DNA of 64,000 bases from Magnetospirillum aberrantis SpK. Its GTDB lineage: Bacteria > Pseudomonadota > Alphaproteobacteria > Rhodospirillales > Magnetospirillaceae. The notes under the pieces were generated by a model. It saw only the letters and a list, made by a program, of their open reading frames with translations, ran no database searches and was not told the DNA's origin. Location of the stretch: positions 62,001 through 126,000 of the forward strand of contig NZ_JAAIYP010000004.1 of assembly GCF_011022235.1 (NCBI RefSeq), in the 5' to 3' direction. Below are positions 47,573-62,264 of this stretch, one piece after another. How positions within the stretch are numbered: the stretch's first letter is position 1; the number at the start of each line of letters is the position of its first letter. Position numbers and translations under genes: made by a program.

Positions 47573-48289
47573 TCAAGCTTCGATTTGGCGCCGGCCTTCA
47601 CCCTTCTCGCCGCCGTCGGGATCGCGCAGCACATAGCCGCGCCCCCACACCGTCTCGATGTAATTGTCGCCGCCGGTGGCGGTGGCCAGCTTTTTCCGCA
47701 GCTTACAGATGAACACGTCGATGATTTTCAGCTCGGGTTCGTCGATGCCGCCGTAAAGATGGTTGAGGAACTGTTCCTTGGTCAGGGTCTGCCCCTTGCG
47801 CAAGGACAGCAGTTCCAGGATGCCGTATTCCTTGCCGGTCAGGTGCAGCGGCTCGCTTCCGGCCTCGACCGTGCGGGTGTCCAGGTTGACCGACAGCTTG
47901 CCGGTACGGATCACCGACTGGGCATGGCCCTTGGAACGGCGCACGATGGCCTGGATGCGGGCCACCAGTTCGCCCCGGTCGAACGGCTTGGTCAGGTAGT
48001 CGTCGGCACCGAAGCCCAGGCCCTTGATCTTCTTGTCCGGTTCGGTCAGCCCCGACAGGATCAGCACCGGCGTCTCGACCCGCGCCGCGCGCAGGCGGCG
48101 CAGCACCTCGTAGCCATCCATGTCGGGCAGCATCAGGTCCAGCAGGATGATGTCGTAATCGTAGAGCTTGCCGATCTCGAGCCCGTCCTCGCCCAGCGCG
48201 GTGGTGTCGACCACCATGCCTTCGGCCTTGAGCATGGTCTCGATGACCTGGGCCATCATCCGGTCGTCCTCGACCACCAGCACTCGCAT
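47573..48289 (-). CDS. ctrA: cell-cycle response regulator CtrA
   Basis: A 238-residue OmpR-type regulator. [39 protein letters not shown] (phosphoacceptor Asp) and [20 protein letters not shown] belong to the receiver. The C-terminal winged helix includes [20 protein letters not shown] and [11 protein letters not shown]. Identity along the whole length is that of alphaproteobacterial CtrA, which controls motility genes and, in some lineages, replication. It is divergent from fliI with CtrA-like boxes between. Confidence 0.96.
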
Positions 48290-48305: not shown

Positions 48306-48332
48306 TTAACCCCTTCAGAATATGTTAACCAT
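48306..48332. promoter_or_regulatory. CtrA binding boxes between ctrA and fliI
   Basis: TTAACCAT (48325-48332) is an exact CtrA half-motif. A second TTAAC half-site starts at 48306, with 15 bases between the two TTAA cores. Both are in the 112-bp divergent region, in a position to regulate ctrA itself and fliI. Confidence 0.6.
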
Positions 48333-48401: not shown

Positions 48402-49757
48402 GTGAAGTTCCTGGCCCGCAATCTGATCAACGACATCGAACGCCTGACCGACGTCAGCGTCTACGGCCGCGTCGCCGCCGTCCAGGGCATGCTGATCGAG
48501 GCCGGCGGCGTACAGCGCCAGATTTCGGTGGGCGACCGCTGCCACGTGGTGGCCCGCGACGGCCGCCGCGTCCCGTGCGAGGCGGTGGGCTTCCGCAACG
48601 GCCGGGCGTTGCTGATGCCGTTCGTCGATGTCAACGGCGTCGGCCTTGGCTGCCGTACCGAGGTCCAGGATTCCGAACCCGTGGTCTATCCCGAGCGTTC
48701 GTGGCTGGGCCGCACCATCAACGCCTTCGCCCAGCCGGTGGACGGATTGGGGCCGTTGGGCCTGGGCGACACCGCCTATCCCATTCGCAACCGGCCGCCG
48801 CCAGCCGCGTCGCGCCAGCGGGTCGCCGGCAAGGTCGATCTGGGCGTGCGCGCGGTCAACTCGTTCCTGACCATGTGCCGGGGTCAGCGCATGGGCATCT
48901 TCGCCGGCTCGGGTGTCGGCAAGTCGTCGATCCTGTCGATGATGGCCAAGAACACCTCGTGCGACGTCTCGATCATCGGGCTGGTCGGCGAACGCGGCCG
49001 CGAGGCGCGCGAATTCATCGAGGACGATCTGGGCGAAGAGGGCATGAAGCGGTCGGTGGTGATCTGCTCGACCTCGGACGAAAGCCCGCTGATGCGCCGC
49101 CAGGCGGCGTATCTGACGCTGTCGGTGGCGGAATATTTCCGCGATCTCGGGCTTGACGTGCTGTGCATGATGGATTCGGTCACCCGCTTCGCCATGGCCC
49201 AGCGCGAAATCAGCCTGTCGGCGGGCGAGCCGCCGGCGTCCAAGGGCTATACCCCCACCGTGTTCGCCGAATTGCCGCGCCTTCTGGAACGCGCCGGCCC
49301 CGGCGTCGGCCAGGGCTCCATCACCGGGCTGTTCACCGTGCTGGTGGACGGCGACGACCACAACGAACCCATTTCCGACGCGGTGCGCGGCATCCTGGAC
49401 GGCCACATCGTGCTGGACCGCGCCATCGCCGACCGCGGCCGCTATCCGGCGGTCAACATCCTGCGCAGCGTGTCGCGAACCATGCCCGGCTGCAACAACG
49501 CCCAGGAAAACGACCTGATCCGCCGCGCCCGGCGCCTGCTCGCCACCTACGAGGACATGGCCGAGCTGATCCGCCTGGGCGCCTATCGCCGCGGCACCGA
49601 CCCGGCGGTGGACGAAGCCATCCATTACTATCCGATGATCGAACAGTTCCTGACCCAGGGCAAAAAGGACGCCACCTCGCTGCACGATTGCTATGCCGCT
49701 CTGGCCCAGATCCTGAAGATGCCGTTCGATGGCGACGGCATGGGGCGCCAGGAATGA
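48402..49757 (+). CDS. fliI: flagellum-specific ATP synthase FliI
   Basis: A 451-residue ATPase of the flagellar type III export apparatus. Walker A is [14 protein letters not shown] at about residues 166-179, Walker B is [19 protein letters not shown] and the region [20 protein letters not shown] is diagnostic of FliI. The start is GTG at 48402. It is divergent from ctrA, which regulates flagellar genes in alphaproteobacteria, and is followed by fliJ. Confidence 0.96.
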
Positions 49758-55563: not shown

Positions 55564-58500
55564 ATGAGTGTCGGCCAACCGTCCAAACGACTGCTTGTCA
55601 TCGAGGATAATCCCGGCGACCAGCGCCTCATCGCGATCAAACTCGCCGAGGCGCAGGTGCCGTGGAAAGCCGATTTGTGCGGCACGCTTGCCGATGGCCT
55701 GCGTCTGGCCGCCGGCACCCCTTACGAATGCATCCTTGCCGATCTGGGCCTGCCCGATGCCTCGGGGCTGGAATCGGTCATCCGCATGAAGGCGCAATCC
55801 CCGGACATCGCCTTGGTGGTGCTGACCGGGTTGGACGACGAACGGGTGGCCCAGGACGCCATCCGCGCCGGCGCCCAGGATTACGTGGTCAAGTCGCTGG
55901 CCGGACTGGAGCTGCTGCCGCGCGTCATCCGGCACGCCATCGAGCGCCAGCAGGCCCAGGTGCAACTGGAGCTGTCGCACCACACCACCCAGGCGTTGCT
56001 GGATGCCAGCCACGACGTCGCCATGTTGCTGGACGCCGACGGCCGCATCATCACCCTGAACGTCCAGGCCGCCGAGCAACTGGGCCACCGCACCGAGGAA
56101 CTGGAGGGCGAAAACCTGTTCGCCCTGTTGCCCAGGGGACTGGCGGCCAACCGCCGCGCCTATTTCGATCAGGCGCTGGAGACCGGCCGCACCGTCGAGT
56201 TCGAGGATTCCGAGGGCGCACGCTGGTTCGCCAGCCGCATCCTGGCGGTGGGAGAAGCCGGCGAACGGCGCTGCGCCTTCTATTCGCGCGACATCACCGC
56301 CGAGCGCGCCGCCGCCGAGAAACTGGCCGAGGCCAAGGAAGACGCCGAACTGGCCAACCGTTCCAAGACCGAGTTCATGGCGCGCATGAGCCGCGACATC
56401 CGCACGCCGCTGAACGACGTCATCGGCTTCGCCGAGATGATCTCGACCGAGATGCTGGGGGCCCTCGTTCCCGGCGGCTATCGCGATTATGCCGAAAGCA
56501 TCCTCAATTCCGGCAGCCAGATCCTCAAGATGCTGGACCGCATCACCGACGTGTCCATGCTGGAATCGGCGCTGTTGAAGGATCAGGCCTCGTACCGCGA
56601 TCTGGTCGAGCTGTCGCCCGACCTGATCTGCGTGTGCGTCGACGGCGTCATCGAACGCATCAACGCCGCCGGCCTTGGCATGCTGCGTGCGCCGTCGGCC
56701 GCCGCGTGCGAGGGCAAGTCGTTCGTGGACTTCGTCCACGCCGACTACCGTGCCCTGTTCGACGCCGGCCTTGAGGCCTTGTACGAGGAAGACCACCCGG
56801 TTCCGGTCAAGATCGTCACCTTCGCCGGACGCCTGCGCGATGTCGAACTGAACGCGGTGCCGCTGCGTCGCGACAACCGGCTGGCCACCCTTCTGGTCGG
56901 ACGCGACACCACCGAGGTCACGGCCGCCATGCGGGCGGTGGCGGCGCGCGAACACCGCATCCGCGCCATCATGGACACCGTGCTGGACGGCATCGTCACC
57001 ATCGACGACGAAGGCGTCATCGTCTCGGCCAACCTGTCGGTGGAGCGCATCTTCGGCTATTCGCTGTCCGAACTGATCGGCGCGCCGGTGGCGCTGCTGA
57101 TGCCCGAACCCGACGCCAGCCATCACCAGGACTACGTTCGCCACTACATCGAAGGGGCCGGCGGCGGCGTCATCGGCATGGGCCGCGAGGTGATGGCCAA
57201 GCGCAAGGACGGCAGCCTGTTCCCCGTCCACCTGTCGGTGTCGGAATTGCGGCTCGACAAGCGGCGGCTGTTCACCGGCACCATCCGCGACCTGACCGAA
57301 AACAAGCAACTGGCCCAGCGCGTCGCCTATCTGGCCAACCACGATTCGCTGACGGACCTGCCCAACCGCACGCTGTTGACCGAACGGTTGGGTCAGGCGG
57401 TGGCCCTGGCGCGGGCCGGCGGGCAGCATGTGGCCTGTGTCACCGTCGATCTTGAAGGGTTCACCACCGTCAACGATTCGCTGGGCCGCGACGTCGGCAA
57501 CGCGCTGCTGCGCGAAACCGCGCGCCGTCTGGGACAGGCGGCGGCGGCCAGCGGCGGCACCGCCGCCCGTCTGGCCGGCGACGAATTCGCCGTGGTGCTG
57601 CCCAACCTGCGCGACCTTTCCAGCGTCAGCCGGGCGGTGGAACAGGTGTGCGAGACCCTGGTCCATCCGTTCCACGTCCACGACACCGAACTGACGCTGG
57701 CCGCCGATTTCGGCATCTCGGTGTTCCCGCGCGACGGCGACGAGGCGTTGGAGCTGTTGCGCAACGCCGAGATGGCGCTGCATCAGGTCAAGCGCCAGCC
57801 CGACAACCATGTGGGCTTCTTCGACGCCGCCATGTCGTTCGCGGTGTCCGAGCGTCTGACGCTGGAACGTTCGCTCAAGGACGCGCTGCGCGACGGCCAT
57901 TTCGAACTGTTCTACCAGCCGCAGGTGCGGCTCAAGGATTATCGCCTGGTCGGCGCCGAGGCGCTGATCCGCTGGCGTCATCCCGAACTGGGGGTGATCG
58001 CCCCCGACAAGTTCATTCCGGTGGCCGAGGAAACCGGCCTGATCGTGCCCATGGGGCGCTGGGTGCTGGAAACCGCCTGTCGCCAGATGCGCACCTGGAC
58101 CGACCAGGGCCTGATGCCCTTGCGCATCGGCGTCAACATCTCGGGGCGCCAGTTCCGTGACGCCGATCTGGCCGAGACGGTGGCCGCCGCCATCGCCGAA
58201 AGCGGCATCGACGCCCGCCGCCTTGACCTGGAACTGACCGAGAGCATGCTGATGGCCGATGGCGAAGGCACGCTCAAGCTGCTGCGTGAATTGGCGGCGC
58301 TGGGGGTGACGCTGTCCATCGATGATTTCGGCACCGGCTATTCGTCCCTGGCTTATCTCAAGCGGTTCCCGGTCAACACGGTCAAGATCGACCGCGCCTT
58401 CGTGCGCGACCTGGACCATGACGAGGACGGCCGCGCCATCGCCAACGCCATCATCTCGCTGGCCCATTCGCTGTCCATGAAGACCATCGCCGAAGGCGTC

Positions 58501-58680
58501 GAGACCAAGGCCCAGGCCGCGCTTCTGGCCCGACACGGTTGCGACGAGATCCAGGGATACATGATCGGCCGGCCGCTGCCGGTGGCCGATTTCAGCGTCT
58601 TTGCCAGGAACTACCAAGAATCCACCTACAACGGTGGACAGGTCGGCGACGAGACCGACCAACGGGGAGCGGAGCCATGA
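55564..58680 (+). CDS. REC-PAS-vestigial HisKA-PAS-PAS-AGDEF-EAL signalling protein
   Basis: A 1038-residue c-di-GMP protein. An N-terminal receiver is at about 9-125 (LLVIEDNPGDQRLIAIKLAE, DLGLPDASG). PAS follows at about 140-250. A HisKA-like helix pair has MSRDIRTPLNDVIGFAEM, where canonical SHE(L/I)RTPL has His replaced by Arg, so it cannot be phosphorylated there, and no ATP-binding domain follows. Two further PAS regions run to about 590. The GGDEF motif is LAGDEFAVVL (first Gly is Ala). The EAL domain is intact (AEALIRWRHP, NISGRQF, ELTES, SIDDFGTGYSS, EGVE). It should be a phosphodiesterase with possible GTP sensing. Stop overlaps the receiver gene. Confidence 0.9.
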   Translation: MSVGQPSKRLLVIEDNPGDQRLIAIKLAEAQVPWKADLCGTLADGLRLAAGTPYECILADLGLPDASGLESVIRMKAQSPDIALVVLTGLDDERVAQDAIRAGAQDYVVKSLAGLELLPRVIRHAIERQQAQVQLELSHHTTQALLDASHDVAMLLDADGRIITLNVQAAEQLGHRTEELEGENLFALLPRGLAANRRAYFDQALETGRTVEFEDSEGARWFASRILAVGEAGERRCAFYSRDITAERAAAEKLAEAKEDAELANRSKTEFMARMSRDIRTPLNDVIGFAEMISTEMLGALVPGGYRDYAESILNSGSQILKMLDRITDVSMLESALLKDQASYRDLVELSPDLICVCVDGVIERINAAGLGMLRAPSAAACEGKSFVDFVHADYRALFDAGLEALYEEDHPVPVKIVTFAGRLRDVELNAVPLRRDNRLATLLVGRDTTEVTAAMRAVAAREHRIRAIMDTVLDGIVTIDDEGVIVSANLSVERIFGYSLSELIGAPVALLMPEPDASHHQDYVRHYIEGAGGGVIGMGREVMAKRKDGSLFPVHLSVSELRLDKRRLFTGTIRDLTENKQLAQRVAYLANHDSLTDLPNRTLLTERLGQAVALARAGGQHVACVTVDLEGFTTVNDSLGRDVGNALLRETARRLGQAAAASGGTAARLAGDEFAVVLPNLRDLSSVSRAVEQVCETLVHPFHVHDTELTLAADFGISVFPRDGDEALELLRNAEMALHQVKRQPDNHVGFFDAAMSFAVSERLTLERSLKDALRDGHFELFYQPQVRLKDYRLVGAEALIRWRHPELGVIAPDKFIPVAEETGLIVPMGRWVLETACRQMRTWTDQGLMPLRIGVNISGRQFRDADLAETVAAAIAESGIDARRLDLELTESMLMADGEGTLKLLRELAALGVTLSIDDFGTGYSSLAYLKRFPVNTVKIDRAFVRDLDHDEDGRAIANAIISLAHSLSMKTIAEGVETKAQAALLARHGCDEIQGYMIGRPLPVADFSVFARNYQESTYNGGQVGDETDQRGAEP

Positions 58681-59042
58681 GCGGGACCGTCGTCATCGTC
58701 GAAGACAACGCGATGAACATGAAACTGCTGGAACAGGCGTTGACCATCGCCGGGTACGACACGGTGAAGTCCTTCGACGGCGAAGGGCTGGTCGACCTGA
58801 CCGCCGGCGCCAGCGCCGCGCTGGTCTTGATGGACATCCAGTTGCCGCGCCATTCCGGCATCGACCTGTTGAAGCTGCTCAAGGCCGACGACCGGACCAG
58901 CACCGTGCCGGTGGTGGCGGTGACCGCCTTCGCCGATCCCGATTCGGTGCAAAGCTTCCTTCGGGAAGGGTTCGATCAGGTCATCACCAAACCCATCTCG
59001 ATCCGCCGCCTGCTGGACGAGGTCGAGCGTTACTGCGCCTGA
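58677..59042 (+). CDS. DivK-like single-domain response regulator
   Basis: A 121-residue stand-alone receiver. VVIVEDNAMNMKLLEQALTI, LVLMDIQLPRHSGIDLLKLL (phosphoacceptor Asp), AVTAFADPDSVQSFLREGFD and TKPISIRRLLDEV are all present and resemble DivK, the essential cell-cycle receiver that contacts DivL. It overlaps the c-di-GMP gene by ATGA and the convergent kinase homologue by 13 bp. Confidence 0.88.
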   Translation: MSGTVVIVEDNAMNMKLLEQALTIAGYDTVKSFDGEGLVDLTAGASAALVLMDIQLPRHSGIDLLKLLKADDRTSTVPVVAVTAFADPDSVQSFLREGFDQVITKPISIRRLLDEVERYCA

Positions 59043-61531
59043 CCGTCCCGCCCGGTGCCGGTCGGCAGACGCACCACGATGGTCGTCCCCTGGCCGGCTT
59101 CCGACTTCAGTTCGACCTTTCCGCCGTGCAGTTCGACGAAACGGCGCACCAGCGACAACCCCAGACCGGCGCCGCTGTTGTGCACCGTGCGCACGAAGCT
59201 TTCGAACACCCGCGCCTGATCGGCGGGCGGAATGCCCGGCCCGGTATCGGCGACCACCAGCCGCAACTCGCCATCCTGACGCTCGGCGCCGACGGTGATG
59301 GCGCCGCCCGGCGGCGTGAACTTCACCGCGTTGCCGATCAGGTTGAACATCACCTGTTTCAGACGGCGCTGGTCGGCGACGATCCAGCCGACGTCCAGCG
59401 GACAGGTGAAATCCAGTTGCAGTTTCTTCTCCCGCACCCGTTCGCGTACCAGCGACAATACCGAAGACAGCATGGGGTGGACGTCAACCGCGTCCAGTTC
59501 CAGGGTCATCTGGCCGGCTTCGATGGCGGCAAGGTCCAGGATGTCCGACACCAGCCGTTCCAAGGCATGGCCGGCATCCGAGATGCCGCGCAGATAGTCG
59601 TGCTGGCGTTTGTTGAGCTTGCCGAAATATTCCGCCGACAGCATTTCGGCGAAACCGATCACCGAGGTCAGGGGTTTGGACACCTCGGCCGAGACGTTGG
59701 CGATGAACTCGCTTTTCAAGGTGTCGGCGGCGGCCAGGGCCTCGTTGCGTTCGATCAGCGCGCGTTCGACGCGGGCGCTGTCGGTGACGTCCAGGAAGGT
59801 CAGCAGCATGGCGCCATCGGGCAAGGGAACGGCGGTGCAGTCGAGGATGGAACCGTCCTGACGTTCCAACCGCCCTTCCTGCGGGGTCCGGCGATTGACC
59901 AAGGCCATCAACTGTTCGTGCGCCGCCGGCCACGCCGACGCCCGGTCGGGCCGCCCCTCGAACAGCGGGCGCAGCCGCTCCACCACCTCGTGCAGGTGGG
60001 GCTCGCCGGACAATTCGTCGGCTTCCAGTTTCCAGATACGGCCGAACGCCGGATTGGTGAGCTTGAGCCGGCCGTCGCCGCCGAACACCGCGATGCCCTC
60101 GTGCAGGTGGTCCAGCGTCTCGCGCTGAACCGCCTGGGCGGTGTGGTAGGAACGCTCAAGGGCCAAGGTATCGGTGACGTCCTCGTAGGTGTAGATCAGC
60201 CCGCCATAGGGATGCGGACTGACCAGCCGGCGCAAGGTGCGGCCGTCGGGCAGGTGCAGCAAGGTCTCGACCGGTTCGATCAGCGAGACGAAGCGCCTCA
60301 ACTCCTCTTCCTTGGCGGCGCGATAATCGGCGGTTTCCGGCAACAGTCGGCGTTCGCGCAGGGCGTCGAGCACGCCGCCATAGGTCGGCGCCGAGGCCAG
60401 CCAGTCGCGGTCCAGCCGCCACAGCCGCACGAAGGCGGTGTTGAAGAAGGTCAGCCGGGTGTCGGTGGAATAGATGGCGATGGCGGTGGACAGACGTTCC
60501 AGCACTTCGCCATGGGCGGCGACGTGATGGGCCAGTTCCGATTGCAGTTCCTCGACACGGGTACGGTCCTGGGCGAAACCGGCGGTCAGGCGGGTCTCGC
60601 CCACCGACAGCGGCACCTCGATGACCGACGCCAGCAGCCGTTCGCCCGACAGCACCAGATGGAACTGTTCCGAGCGCGATTCGCCGGCGGCGCGGGCACG
60701 GGCCGCCAGGGCGCGGGCCTCGCGCACCAGATTGTCGGGAGCCAGTTCCACCTGCCCGGCCACCACCGCCTCGGGGCTGGCGGCATCGACCGCCGCCGCG
60801 TAGGCACGGTTGACGGTCATCAGCGACAAATCCTCGTCGCGCAGCCAGACCGGCATGGGCAAGGCGTCGATCATCGCCCGAAGAAACGCGGTATCGGAGG
60901 CCAACGCCTGAAGCGAACGGGCCAGGTCTTCGACCGTCCCGGCGCTTTCCGAGACGTCTTGCAGCCAGATCATGTCCGCCAGCGCCTCGCCCTCGGGGGT
61001 GGCGGCGCGCATGCCCACGACGCGGACCCGCCGCCCCCCTTCGCCCAGGCGCAGGTCGTGCTCGAAACCGTCGCCCTCGTTCCGCAGAATCCGAACCGCC
61101 GTCTCGAGAACGCGGGCGTCGTCGGTGGCGAAGGCCGCCAGCACGTCATCGAACGACGATTCGACACCACGCGGCAGAGCCAGCAGCACCGCCAGCCGGC
61201 GCGAACACCACGGCGCCCCCGGACCACCCTCGGGCCAGCAGAAAAACCCCTCGGGGCTGGTGGACAGACATTCCCCGAAGCGGGTCGCCGCGTCCTCGGC
61301 GGCACGCAGCCGGGCGGCGGCGCGCATCAGACGCCAGCGCTGCCACAGCGCGACGGCGGTAACGAAGGGAAAGGCCACGGCGGCGCCCAGGATGGCGGCA
61401 CCCAGCGCCGGACTCATCACCACGTAATCGGCGGCAGCGGCGGCGACGGTTTCGTCCTGAGCCCACGCCGTGGACGCCACCGCCCAAACCATGGCGGTGG
61501 ATACCAACAGCTTACCCAGGTCTTCACGCAT
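59030..61531 (-). CDS. DivL-like PAS pseudo-histidine kinase
   Basis: An 833-residue protein. An N-terminal hydrophobic helix (MSPALGAAILGAAVAFPFVT, about residues 39-58) anchors it, after a signal-like start. Several PAS-like domains occupy about 90-600 (FLRAMIDALPMPVWLRDEDL, TLDHLHEGIAVFGGDGRLKL). The kinase end has NVSAEVSKPLTSVIGFAEML, where the phosphoacceptor His of SHE(L/I)RTPL is Ala. The ATP-binding half is intact (N-box MFNLIGNAVKFTPP, G1 DTGPGIPP, G2 GAGLGLSLV). DivL of Caulobacter has Tyr there. GAGGGAG precedes the ATG at 61529-61531. Confidence 0.85.
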   Translation of the reverse strand: MREDLGKLLVSTAMVWAVASTAWAQDETVAAAAADYVVMSPALGAAILGAAVAFPFVTAVALWQRWRLMRAAARLRAAEDAATRFGECLSTSPEGFFCWPEGGPGAPWCSRRLAVLLALPRGVESSFDDVLAAFATDDARVLETAVRILRNEGDGFEHDLRLGEGGRRVRVVGMRAATPEGEALADMIWLQDVSESAGTVEDLARSLQALASDTAFLRAMIDALPMPVWLRDEDLSLMTVNRAYAAAVDAASPEAVVAGQVELAPDNLVREARALAARARAAGESRSEQFHLVLSGERLLASVIEVPLSVGETRLTAGFAQDRTRVEELQSELAHHVAAHGEVLERLSTAIAIYSTDTRLTFFNTAFVRLWRLDRDWLASAPTYGGVLDALRERRLLPETADYRAAKEEELRRFVSLIEPVETLLHLPDGRTLRRLVSPHPYGGLIYTYEDVTDTLALERSYHTAQAVQRETLDHLHEGIAVFGGDGRLKLTNPAFGRIWKLEADELSGEPHLHEVVERLRPLFEGRPDRASAWPAAHEQLMALVNRRTPQEGRLERQDGSILDCTAVPLPDGAMLLTFLDVTDSARVERALIERNEALAAADTLKSEFIANVSAEVSKPLTSVIGFAEMLSAEYFGKLNKRQHDYLRGISDAGHALERLVSDILDLAAIEAGQMTLELDAVDVHPMLSSVLSLVRERVREKKLQLDFTCPLDVGWIVADQRRLKQVMFNLIGNAVKFTPPGGAITVGAERQDGELRLVVADTGPGIPPADQARVFESFVRTVHNSGAGLGLSLVRRFVELHGGKVELKSEAGQGTTIVVRLPTGTGRDGQAQ

Positions 61532-61685
61532 GCTCCCTCTCCGACGGCAGGGCGCGCCCACGCCTTGGCGCGAGAGTGCCCCCCGTCCGTCCGAAAGGCA
61601 AGGGCCGGGCGCGACGTTTCGCCGTTGTCGCCGGCAAGCGCGCCTGTTAAACCCTGGCGGTCTCTTCAGACCAAGGATCGTGGCG

Positions 61686-62264
61686 ATGCTGCAAAAGACC
61701 TATGACTGGATGATGGAAAAGGCCGCCCACCGGCACGCCGTGTGGTGGCTGGCCTTCATCTCCTTCATCGAAAGCTCGGTCTTTCCCATTCCGCCCGACC
61801 TGATGCTGATCCCCATGGTGCTGGCGGCCCCGACACGCTGGTTCCGGCTGGCCATGGTCTGCACGCTGTCGTCGGTGGTGGGGGGCTATCTCGGCTACGC
61901 CATCGGCTATTACTTCATGGACAGCATCGGCGCCGCCATCCTGGCCGCCCTGCACCTGACCGAGAAGTTCGACGCTTTCAAGCCGCTGGTGGACGAATAC
62001 GGCGTGTGGGTGATCATCGTCAAAGGCGCCACCCCCATCCCCTACAAGCTGATCACCATCGCCGCCGGCGCCTTCCATTTCGACCTGGCGCATTTCTCCT
62101 TCGCCAGCTTCATCGCCCGCGGCATGCGTTTCTTTCTGGTCGCCGTCCTGCTGTGGCGGTTCGGCCCGCCCATCCGCGTGTTCGTGGAACGCCGGCTGAA
62201 GCTGGTCACCACCGCGCTGGTGGTGCTGATGGTGGCCGGCGTGGCGGTGCTGAAGTTCCTGTAG
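61686..62264 (+). CDS. DedA/YqaA-family membrane protein
   Basis: A 192-residue inner-membrane protein of the DedA superfamily. FISFIESSVFPIPPDLMLIP (the acidic/Pro motif), VVGGYLGYAIGYYF and IIVKGATPIPYKLITIAAGA are characteristic. The family helps lipid transport and envelope stability. An in-frame GTG two codons upstream is an alternative start. It is divergent from the DivL-like gene and converges on zapE. Confidence 0.87.
   Translation: MLQKTYDWMMEKAAHRHAVWWLAFISFIESSVFPIPPDLMLIPMVLAAPTRWFRLAMVCTLSSVVGGYLGYAIGYYFMDSIGAAILAALHLTEKFDAFKPLVDEYGVWVIIVKGATPIPYKLITIAAGAFHFDLAHFSFASFIARGMRFFLVAVLLWRFGPPIRVFVERRLKLVTTALVVLMVAGVAVLKFL

What the first reader, a model, noticed from the sequence alone, without database searches (positions are those of the whole stretch)
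55564..61531. Possible non-catalytic signalling node: c-di-GMP phosphodiesterase, DivK-like receiver and DivL-like pseudokinase
Three genes meet within 6 kb. The receiver gene overlaps the c-di-GMP gene by 4 bp and the pseudokinase gene by 13 bp. Both larger proteins have lost the HisKA phosphoacceptor. The locus may link c-di-GMP turnover to the CtrA pathway, whose regulator CtrA and target fliI are also in this window.
Basis: inference. Interest (0 to 1): 0.7.

Follow-up and report, generated by a model that had tools for sequence, protein, structure and literature searches.

The report
Receiver paired with kinase-less c-di-GMP enzyme
In Magnetospirillum and its relatives, an enzyme predicted to break down the messenger c-di-GMP carries half of a disabled sensor kinase and has its gene beside that of a small DivK-like signal protein, which suggests, but does not prove, that a cell-cycle-type signal switches the enzyme by docking on the dead kinase piece.

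Summary
The three genes and both overlaps are as described, and both large proteins lack the phospho-acceptor histidine (Arg277; Ala615). The reading changes. The conserved unit is two genes: a REC-PAS-pseudoDHp-PAS-PAS-GGDEF-EAL phosphodiesterase and a DivK-family receiver, side by side in the 36 relatives of 55 that have them. The third gene is the ordinary DivL orthologue; it lies within 2.5 kb of the pair in only 3 of 36, and Ala at its His site was already in print for Magnetospirillum magneticum (PMC4211667). The receiver is a DivK paralogue; true DivK is elsewhere. The DHp without ATPase domain has the highest mean identity of the enzyme's domains (80.6%; EAL 79.9%), EAL residues are intact, GGDEF looks degenerate. 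Homologues outside the family mostly keep the His (36 of 40 read) with one two-component neighbour found by small home-made profiles; inside it the His is mostly lost and a REC, REC-Hpt or Hpt gene sits beside. Best explanation: the pseudo-DHp docks a DivK-family receiver to gate c-di-GMP hydrolysis, as DivL does for CckA. No interaction or activity was tested. New variant of a known kind.

The parts
55564..58680 (+). predicted c-di-GMP phosphodiesterase, REC-PAS-pseudoDHp-PAS-PAS-GGDEF(degenerate)-EAL, 1038 aa
55594..55917 (+). N-terminal receiver (REC) domain; acidic residues 14-15, phospho-Asp60, Thr88, Lys110 kept in 34 of 34 readable orthologues
56362..56568 (+). pseudo-DHp (HisKA 44.7 bits, no HATPase in the protein); predicted two long helices, residues 245-294 and 305-344
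56392..56394 (+). codon of Arg277 at the phospho-acceptor site (R in 33 of 35 proteins counted, H in 2)
57334..57807 (+). GGDEF domain, motif AGDEF, guanine-contact Asp (PleD D344, numbering recalled) replaced by Asn: probably not a cyclase
57868..58575 (+). EAL domain with all catalytic residues checked
58677..59042 (+). stand-alone DivK-family receiver, phospho-Asp53; paralogue, not orthologue, of DivK
59030..61531 (-). DivL orthologue, PAS-HisKA-HATPase pseudokinase; convergent neighbour, not part of the conserved unit
59687..59689 (-). codon of Ala615 at the phospho-acceptor site of DivL
47576..48289 (-). ctrA, recurrent neighbour
48435..49754 (+). fliI, recurrent neighbour

Best explanation
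55564-59042 is a two-gene operon. The phosphodiesterase carries a DHp domain nearest to the PdhS type that has no catalytic ATPase domain and, in this lineage, no phospho-acceptor histidine, but has kept residues of the receiver-docking face. The receiver encoded next (or DivK itself), depending on its phosphorylation, docks on this pseudo-DHp; the signal passes through the two PAS domains and the degenerate GGDEF to the EAL domain and changes c-di-GMP breakdown. The N-terminal REC is a second phospho-input. c-di-GMP would then act on CckA-CtrA and flagellar functions. Shown: architecture, residue states, conservation of the gene pair, recurrent linkage to ctrA-fliI. Inferred: co-transcription, docking, direction of control, effect on c-di-GMP and CtrA. 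DivL next door is a separate conserved gene.
For: Pair adjacent in 36 of 36 genomes that have it and in 30 of 30 named loci, largely the same genomes, overlapping in 16 and 2-20 bp apart in 14. Pseudo-DHp has the highest mean pairwise identity of the domains (80.6%; EAL 79.9, PAS1 61.6). Positions matching DivL residues shown to matter for DivK~P binding (R553, T557, Y562, H579; PMC4211667 passages) are R 35/35, N 35/35, F 33/35, Y 31/35, the letters of 5 of 7 His-bearing kinases of this genome that I aligned. Nearest NCBIfam model for the DHp alone is PdhS, 68 bits against 57 for the next, all far under cut-off. Receiver helix alpha1, the usual DHp contact, is its least variable helix (entropy 0.24 against 0.42-1.13). 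In a second clade of the family 9 of 10 genes sit beside a gene with REC and/or Hpt. Phosphodiesterase within 7.3 kb of ctrA in 12 of 36.
Against: No interaction, phosphotransfer, enzyme or transcript data. By share of invariant columns the DHp (0.35) ranks below EAL 0.46, PAS2 0.42, REC 0.38 and PAS3 0.38; it ties with EAL (0.47) only when the divergent row L139 is left out. The R, N and Y letters are shared by all 7 own kinases aligned, so they may be general HisKA features kept for helix packing. Alpha1 is also conserved in DivK controls (0.32). Two orthologues have His at the site. Most homologues outside the family keep the His and had no such neighbour found, so a partner is not needed by the architecture as such. 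The N-terminal REC could be the domain's true partner. No CtrA site upstream. Linkage counts are not phylogenetically independent.
Confidence: 0.45

Rival explanations
1. The pseudo-DHp is only a dimerisation and signal-relay stalk between the N-terminal REC-PAS and the GGDEF-EAL output; the enzyme is an ordinary REC-controlled phosphodiesterase, and the neighbouring receiver works elsewhere or as a phosphate sink for the same kinase.
For: Phospho-capable REC at the N terminus in 34 of 34 readable orthologues; predicted long two-helix hairpin; homologues in other families have the DHp with one adjacent receiver found in 40.
Against: A mere stalk need not keep the RTPLN motif; it is kept in 34-35 of 35 while the His is not, and R, T, P, L and the Tyr at the H579 position are invariant in the 7 rows of A3, which span two clades. 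Mean identity of the DHp equals that of the catalytic domain.
Confidence: 0.32
2. The receiver acts on DivL, as DivK does in Caulobacter, and the phosphodiesterase is controlled separately; the three genes form a CtrA-input locus in this strain.
For: Receiver is DivK-like; DivL is next to it here and in G025, and one ORF away in G033, Paramagnetospirillum caucaseum.
Against: DivL is near the pair in few genomes. In all 13 genomes of the window's genus the DivL residue matching Arg553, needed for DivK~P binding in Caulobacter, is Ala or Ser. The receiver gene follows the phosphodiesterase in every case seen, not divL.
Confidence: 0.13
3. The DHp is a phospho-carrier in the family at large (His kept outside), and in the window's lineage it is a decaying relic with no role; the gene pair is mere co-expression.
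For: His kept in 36 of 40 outside homologues read; His-site residues vary (R, Y, H, G, S), with 5 changes among R, H and Y as the fewest on the tree; one orthologue (L139) has a much diverged DHp.
Against: A relic would drift; mean identity is 80.6% and Arg280, Pro282, Leu283, Asn284 are invariant in 35.
Confidence: 0.1

Closest known systems
DivL of Caulobacter crescentus (PDB 4q20; PMC4211667, passages)
   Same: A histidine-kinase module without the phospho-acceptor His, used as a docking sensor for phosphorylated DivK. The window's third gene is its orthologue.
   Different: In the phosphodiesterase the DHp has no ATPase domain and the output is an EAL enzyme, not control of CckA. The residue is Arg, not Tyr (Caulobacter DivL) or Ala (Magnetospirillum DivL).
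DivK (PDB 1m5t)
   Same: Single-domain receiver, best PDB relative of the window's receiver (82 bits), with the EDN-xx-NMKL start of helix alpha1.
   Different: 41% identity to Caulobacter DivK against 73% for the true DivK of this genome; separate clade, 99/99; tied to a phosphodiesterase gene.
PdhS / DivJ / PleC kinases
   Same: The DHp of the phosphodiesterase scores best with PdhS among NCBIfam models, and PAS1-DHp finds HELRTPLN kinases of this genome first. That those kinases are PleC/DivJ-like is my recollection of the motif, not a test.
   Different: No His, no ATPase domain, GGDEF-EAL output.
PdeA (CC3396) of Caulobacter, PAS-GGDEF-EAL with a degenerate GGDEF (recalled, not tested)
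   Same: Degenerate GGDEF before an active EAL.
   Different: No DHp, no REC, no partner receiver (recalled).
Order-wide DHp-PAS-PAS-GGDEF-EAL proteins
   Same: Same domain order from DHp to EAL and no HATPase (Pfam on 10 of 10, local profile on 40 of 40); nine of the 40 also have a REC domain.
   Different: 36 of 40 read keep the His; one two-component neighbour found in 40.

Membership tests
DivL | reciprocal best match with Caulobacter DivL kinase module | tested here: met
   P0003 to PDB: DivL 168 bits, next 125; DivL segment to this genome: P0003 170 bits, next 127
DivL | HisKA plus HATPase with a non-His at the phospho-acceptor site | tested here: met
   site A 46, C 3, V 1 of 50 aligned proteins
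DivL | Arg553-type residue used for DivK~P binding | tested here: not met
   Ser in the window, Ala/Ser in 13 of 13 of its genus, Arg in 32 of 50 overall. This marks a possible loss of coupling; orthology rests on the reciprocal match
DivL | binds DivK~P and controls CckA | not testable with these tools
   needs experiment
DivK (orthologue) | closest gene of the genome to Caulobacter DivK | tested here: not met
   C39 gene 73%, window receiver 41%
DivK family (receiver clade) | groups with DivK rather than with other receivers of the genome | tested here: inconclusive
   joined with DivK at 88/66 among 55 receivers, 15 of them other own stand-alone or hybrid receivers and one the REC of the phosphodiesterase; own clade 99/99; bootstrap not settled
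EAL phosphodiesterase | catalytic residues EAL-E, N, E, DD, K, E, Q | tested here: met
   each 35 of 35 or 34 of 34 readable
EAL phosphodiesterase | hydrolyses c-di-GMP | not testable with these tools
   needs assay
diguanylate cyclase | GG[D/E]EF and guanine-contact Asp | tested here: not met
   first motif residue Ala in 31 of 35, Gly in 4; Asn in 34 or Ser in 1 at the Asp site
PdhS/DivJ/PleC histidine kinase | His phospho-acceptor and HATPase domain | tested here: not met
   Arg277, no HATPase

The most novel reading that the evidence does not exclude
A DivL-like 'repurposed kinase' logic has arisen in c-di-GMP hydrolysis: an order-wide class of phosphodiesterases carries a DHp without ATPase domain; ancestrally its His may take part in phosphotransfer, and in the Magnetospirillum family the His was lost as the enzyme acquired a dedicated neighbour (a DivK-family receiver in one clade, REC-Hpt or Hpt proteins in another), which reads out phosphorelay state by docking and sets c-di-GMP for the CtrA/flagellar pathway.
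Probability: 0.33. Interest if true: 0.68.

Novelty: new variant of a known kind. Interest (0 to 1): 0.5.

Why it matters
If true, it shows a further route by which alphaproteobacterial phosphorelays set c-di-GMP: not by phosphorylating a REC on the enzyme but by docking on a dead DHp. It would give cultured magnetotactic bacteria a testable input from DivK-type signalling to motility, and a natural series (His kept, His lost, partner gained) in which the turning of a kinase part into a sensor can be followed.

Tried and rejected
Three-gene synteny as the conserved unit: rejected by coordinates in 36 genomes. Receiver as DivK itself: rejected. CtrA control through TTAA-N7-TTAA sites (motif recalled): none upstream of the phosphodiesterase (0 of 30) or divL (0 of 37); one site with one mismatch in the window, between ctrA and fliI, within chance for the whole window (0.84 expected) and absent from the 11 other fliI loci. 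A partner link in another family (G200, G205): a receiver about 50% identical is there but not beside the homologous phosphodiesterase; in G200 a different PAS-GGDEF-EAL gene (42% over residues 457-1015) lies about 0.9 kb away, pointing towards the receiver gene, in G205 none was seen. The DHp-PAS2 module elsewhere in the class: of 385 genomes sampled, the own one alone passes E 1e-25 with model A1, but of that sample only two other genomes of the family are visible in the listing; the wider model A3 then showed the domain order across the order. Fold search of the REC-PAS-DHp model gave mixed REC and PAS-kinase matches and added little.

Literature: ten searches of an open-licence library; in the listings and the passages I read I found no description of this gene pair or of an EAL enzyme with a DHp as receiver dock. 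Most listed papers were not opened, and the paper on the Magnetospirillum CtrA pathway (PMC3370617) is not held. HisKA-only proteins as such are a known category: an Azospirillum survey keeps those encoded beside another two-component gene (PMC4618731, passages).

Mended on checking: a second conservation measure that goes against the DHp was added, the docking letters were found to be general to the 7 kinases aligned, the grouping of the two family clades is weak (87/13), the L147 neighbour is Hpt only by Pfam, and a copy number was corrected; confidence was lowered from 0.47 to 0.45, the stalk rival raised from 0.30 to 0.32 and the novel case lowered from 0.35 to 0.33 for this.

Weak points of counts: neighbours in the 40 outside loci were sought with small home-made REC, Hpt and HATPase profiles, which missed the receiver gene beside L152 (itself 29.7 bits in Pfam, cut-off 30.2) and may miss others; three of the 40 have under 600 bases on one side; the 40 are a choice of 54 matches that I count with the DHp included in a capped list. 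Two His sites of the 40 (L289, L320) could not be read. L142 was left out of the residue tallies; of the broken L118 and L141 only the longest piece was used there; L118 and L142 were left out of the tree. L125 was left out of the receiver entropies, whose helix limits I set by hand.

Full report
WHAT IS THERE. The three open reading frames and the two overlaps are as reported. The first gene (55564-58680, +) codes for REC-PAS-HisKA-PAS-PAS-GGDEF-EAL with no HATPase; the second (58677-59042, +) for a lone receiver; the third (61531-59030, -) for a PAS-HisKA-HATPase protein. The window lies in a 4.15 Mb draft genome.

THE THIRD GENE IS DIVL. Its best solved relative is Caulobacter DivL (168 bits, next 125), and the Caulobacter DivL kinase segment finds it first in this genome (170 bits, next 127). 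Of 55 genomes of the family 53 have one match at E 1e-70. At the phospho-acceptor site 46 of 50 aligned proteins have Ala, 3 Cys, 1 Val. That Magnetospirillum magneticum DivL has Ala is in print (PMC4211667, passages). Not in the passages I saw: the residue matching DivL Arg553, whose change to Ala lowered DivK~P binding in Caulobacter (same passages), is Ala or Ser in 13 of 13 genomes of the window's genus and Arg in 32 of all 50.

THE SECOND GENE IS A DIVK PARALOGUE. Its best solved relative is DivK (82 bits), but a gene on another contig is 73% identical to Caulobacter DivK over 115 residues against 41% for this one. In a tree of 55 receivers, 17 of the window's type form one clade (99/99), with a 50% identical stand-alone receiver of another family beside it (98/87), joined to DivK at 88/66. 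The bootstrap had not settled, and long branches make the deeper joins unsure.

THE FIRST GENE. All EAL catalytic residues checked are kept in every readable protein (34 or 35); the N-terminal REC keeps its acidic pair, phospho-Asp, Thr and Lys in 34 of 34. The GGDEF motif has Ala first in 31 of 35, and the Asp that contacts guanine in PleD (recalled) is Asn in 34, Ser in 1, so cyclase activity is unlikely. The DHp has Arg at the phospho-acceptor site in 33 of 35 and His in 2 (the 36th, L142, left out of the count, reads Arg). Mean pairwise identity over 35 proteins is 80.6% for the DHp, 79.9% EAL, 79.2% PAS2, 76.3% PAS3, 72.9% REC, 68.0% GGDEF, 61.6% PAS1. By share of invariant columns the order is different: EAL 0.46, PAS2 0.42, REC 0.38, PAS3 0.38, DHp 0.35, GGDEF 0.29, PAS1 0.19; without the divergent row L139 the DHp has 0.47, as EAL. 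A predicted model of residues 1-345 (33 sequences; mean pLDDT 84.7, pTM 0.46) shows REC, a long helix, PAS and two long helices 245-294 and 305-344, with Arg277 in the first; the placing of the domains is not reliable at this pTM.

THE CONSERVED UNIT. In the family, 36 of 55 genomes have a receiver orthologue (55-83% identity apart from the own) and the same 36 a close phosphodiesterase orthologue (66-85%); the receiver follows in all 36. In the named collection 30 of 37 loci found are orthologues; the other 7 are short or weak matches (27-53%) in other organisms. In 30 of 30, largely the same genomes as the 36, the receiver follows on the same strand, overlapping by 1 or 4 bases as computed in 16 and 2-20 bases away in 14. 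In a sample of 297 genomes of the order, among matches at E 1e-26 none outside the family is above 50%.

NEIGHBOURHOOD. So divL and the pair both tend to live near ctrA-fliI, and meet only now and then. These genomes are related, so the counts are not independent events.

WIDER FAMILY. Ten more distant homologues in the family (39-44% identity) form a clade (100/100); its grouping with the window's clade to the exclusion of an outside row, L318, has only 87/13. Pfam finds HisKA above cut-off in 7 of 10 and HATPase in none. The His site reads Y 4, H 2, R 1, G 1, S 1, gap 1. Upstream, on the same strand, Pfam finds REC plus Hpt at L143 and L145, REC at L144 (its Hpt under cut-off), and Hpt at L146, L147, L148, L150, L151; downstream of L152 lies a REC of 29.7 bits (cut-off 30.2); nothing was seen at L149. 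With a model of both clades, 123 of 297 genomes of the order have a match, many without the DHp. Of 54 matches outside the family that I count with the DHp in that capped list I read 40: His 36, Tyr 1, Arg 1, not readable 2; none has a HATPase by a local profile, nine have a REC domain in the same protein, and one has a receiver gene within 1.2 kb. Pfam on 10 of these 40 finds HisKA above cut-off and no HATPase in 10 of 10. On the tree of the two family clades the labels R, H and Y need at least 5 changes. The contrast (His kept and hardly a partner found outside; His mostly lost and partner present inside) is a correlation of few lineages, and the neighbour search outside was less sensitive than Pfam.

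HOW IT MAY WORK. DivL uses a DHp without His to sense DivK~P (PMC4211667). At the four positions shown to matter in DivL the pseudo-DHp has R, N, F, Y, as 5 of 7 own kinases aligned; the other two differ only in the third letter, so these letters are not proof of DivK specificity. The nearest family model for the DHp alone is PdhS (68 bits, next 57, all under cut-off). The receiver's alpha1 helix is its least variable helix (mean entropy 0.24; DivK control 0.32), while alpha4 is looser than in DivK (0.86 against 0.33) and alpha5 tighter (0.42 against 0.92). I infer that the receiver docks on the pseudo-DHp and changes hydrolysis. Which way, and with which kinase upstream, is unknown. That c-di-GMP acts on CckA is stated in PMC9756655 (passages, citing others); here the link rests on gene neighbourhood alone.

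KNOWN AND NEW. DivL with Ala: known. HisKA parts in EAL proteins are mentioned for Caulobacterales and Rhizobiales, there together with HATPase and Hpt domains (PMC9756655), and HisKA-only proteins are a known category (PMC4618731). I found no text on a DHp as receiver dock on a GGDEF-EAL enzyme, nor on this gene pair, in ten searches of an open-licence library. Papers were seen as search listings, except passages of PMC4211667, PMC2877005, PMC9756655, PMC8116508, PMC5845226, PMC4618731 and PMC12471899.

Noticed in passing
59030-61531 and DivL orthologues: The DivL residue matching Caulobacter Arg553 (DivK~P binding) is Ala/Ser in 13 of 13 genomes of the window's genus but Arg in 32 of 50 overall; DivL may be uncoupled from DivK there.
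   Followed up: partly
36 relatives, e.g. L246, L247; window 61683-62261: divL and ctrA lie within 15.3 kb of each other in 14 of 36 genomes; in L246 and L247 the order is divL, VTT-domain (DedA-like) gene, fliI, ctrA; the same VTT gene stands beside divL in the window.
   Followed up: partly
48314-48328: The only TTAA-N7-TTAA-like site of the window (one mismatch) lies between ctrA and fliI; not seen at the 11 other fliI loci tested.
   Followed up: yes
L141 (G038), L142 (G028), L118 (G044), L125 (G037): Broken frames: the phosphodiesterase in the first three (around residues 861-868, around 595-596, one stop codon) and the receiver in the fourth (around residues 95-98); sequencing error or real loss not told apart.
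   Followed up: no
L252, L253 (G200, G205, another family): A stand-alone receiver about 50% identical to the window's, beside its clade in the tree (G200 copy), without the phosphodiesterase pair; these genomes have the homologous phosphodiesterase elsewhere.
   Followed up: partly
L285-L324: An order-wide set of DHp-PAS-PAS-GGDEF-EAL proteins without HATPase of which 36 of 40 read keep the His, a possible phosphotransfer-controlled phosphodiesterase class.
   Followed up: partly
L242 (G038:C1:986869-987216) and similar genes in G033, G040, G047: A further DivK-like paralogue (37-38% to the window's receiver) in some genomes of genus g16, three copies in G033.
   Followed up: no
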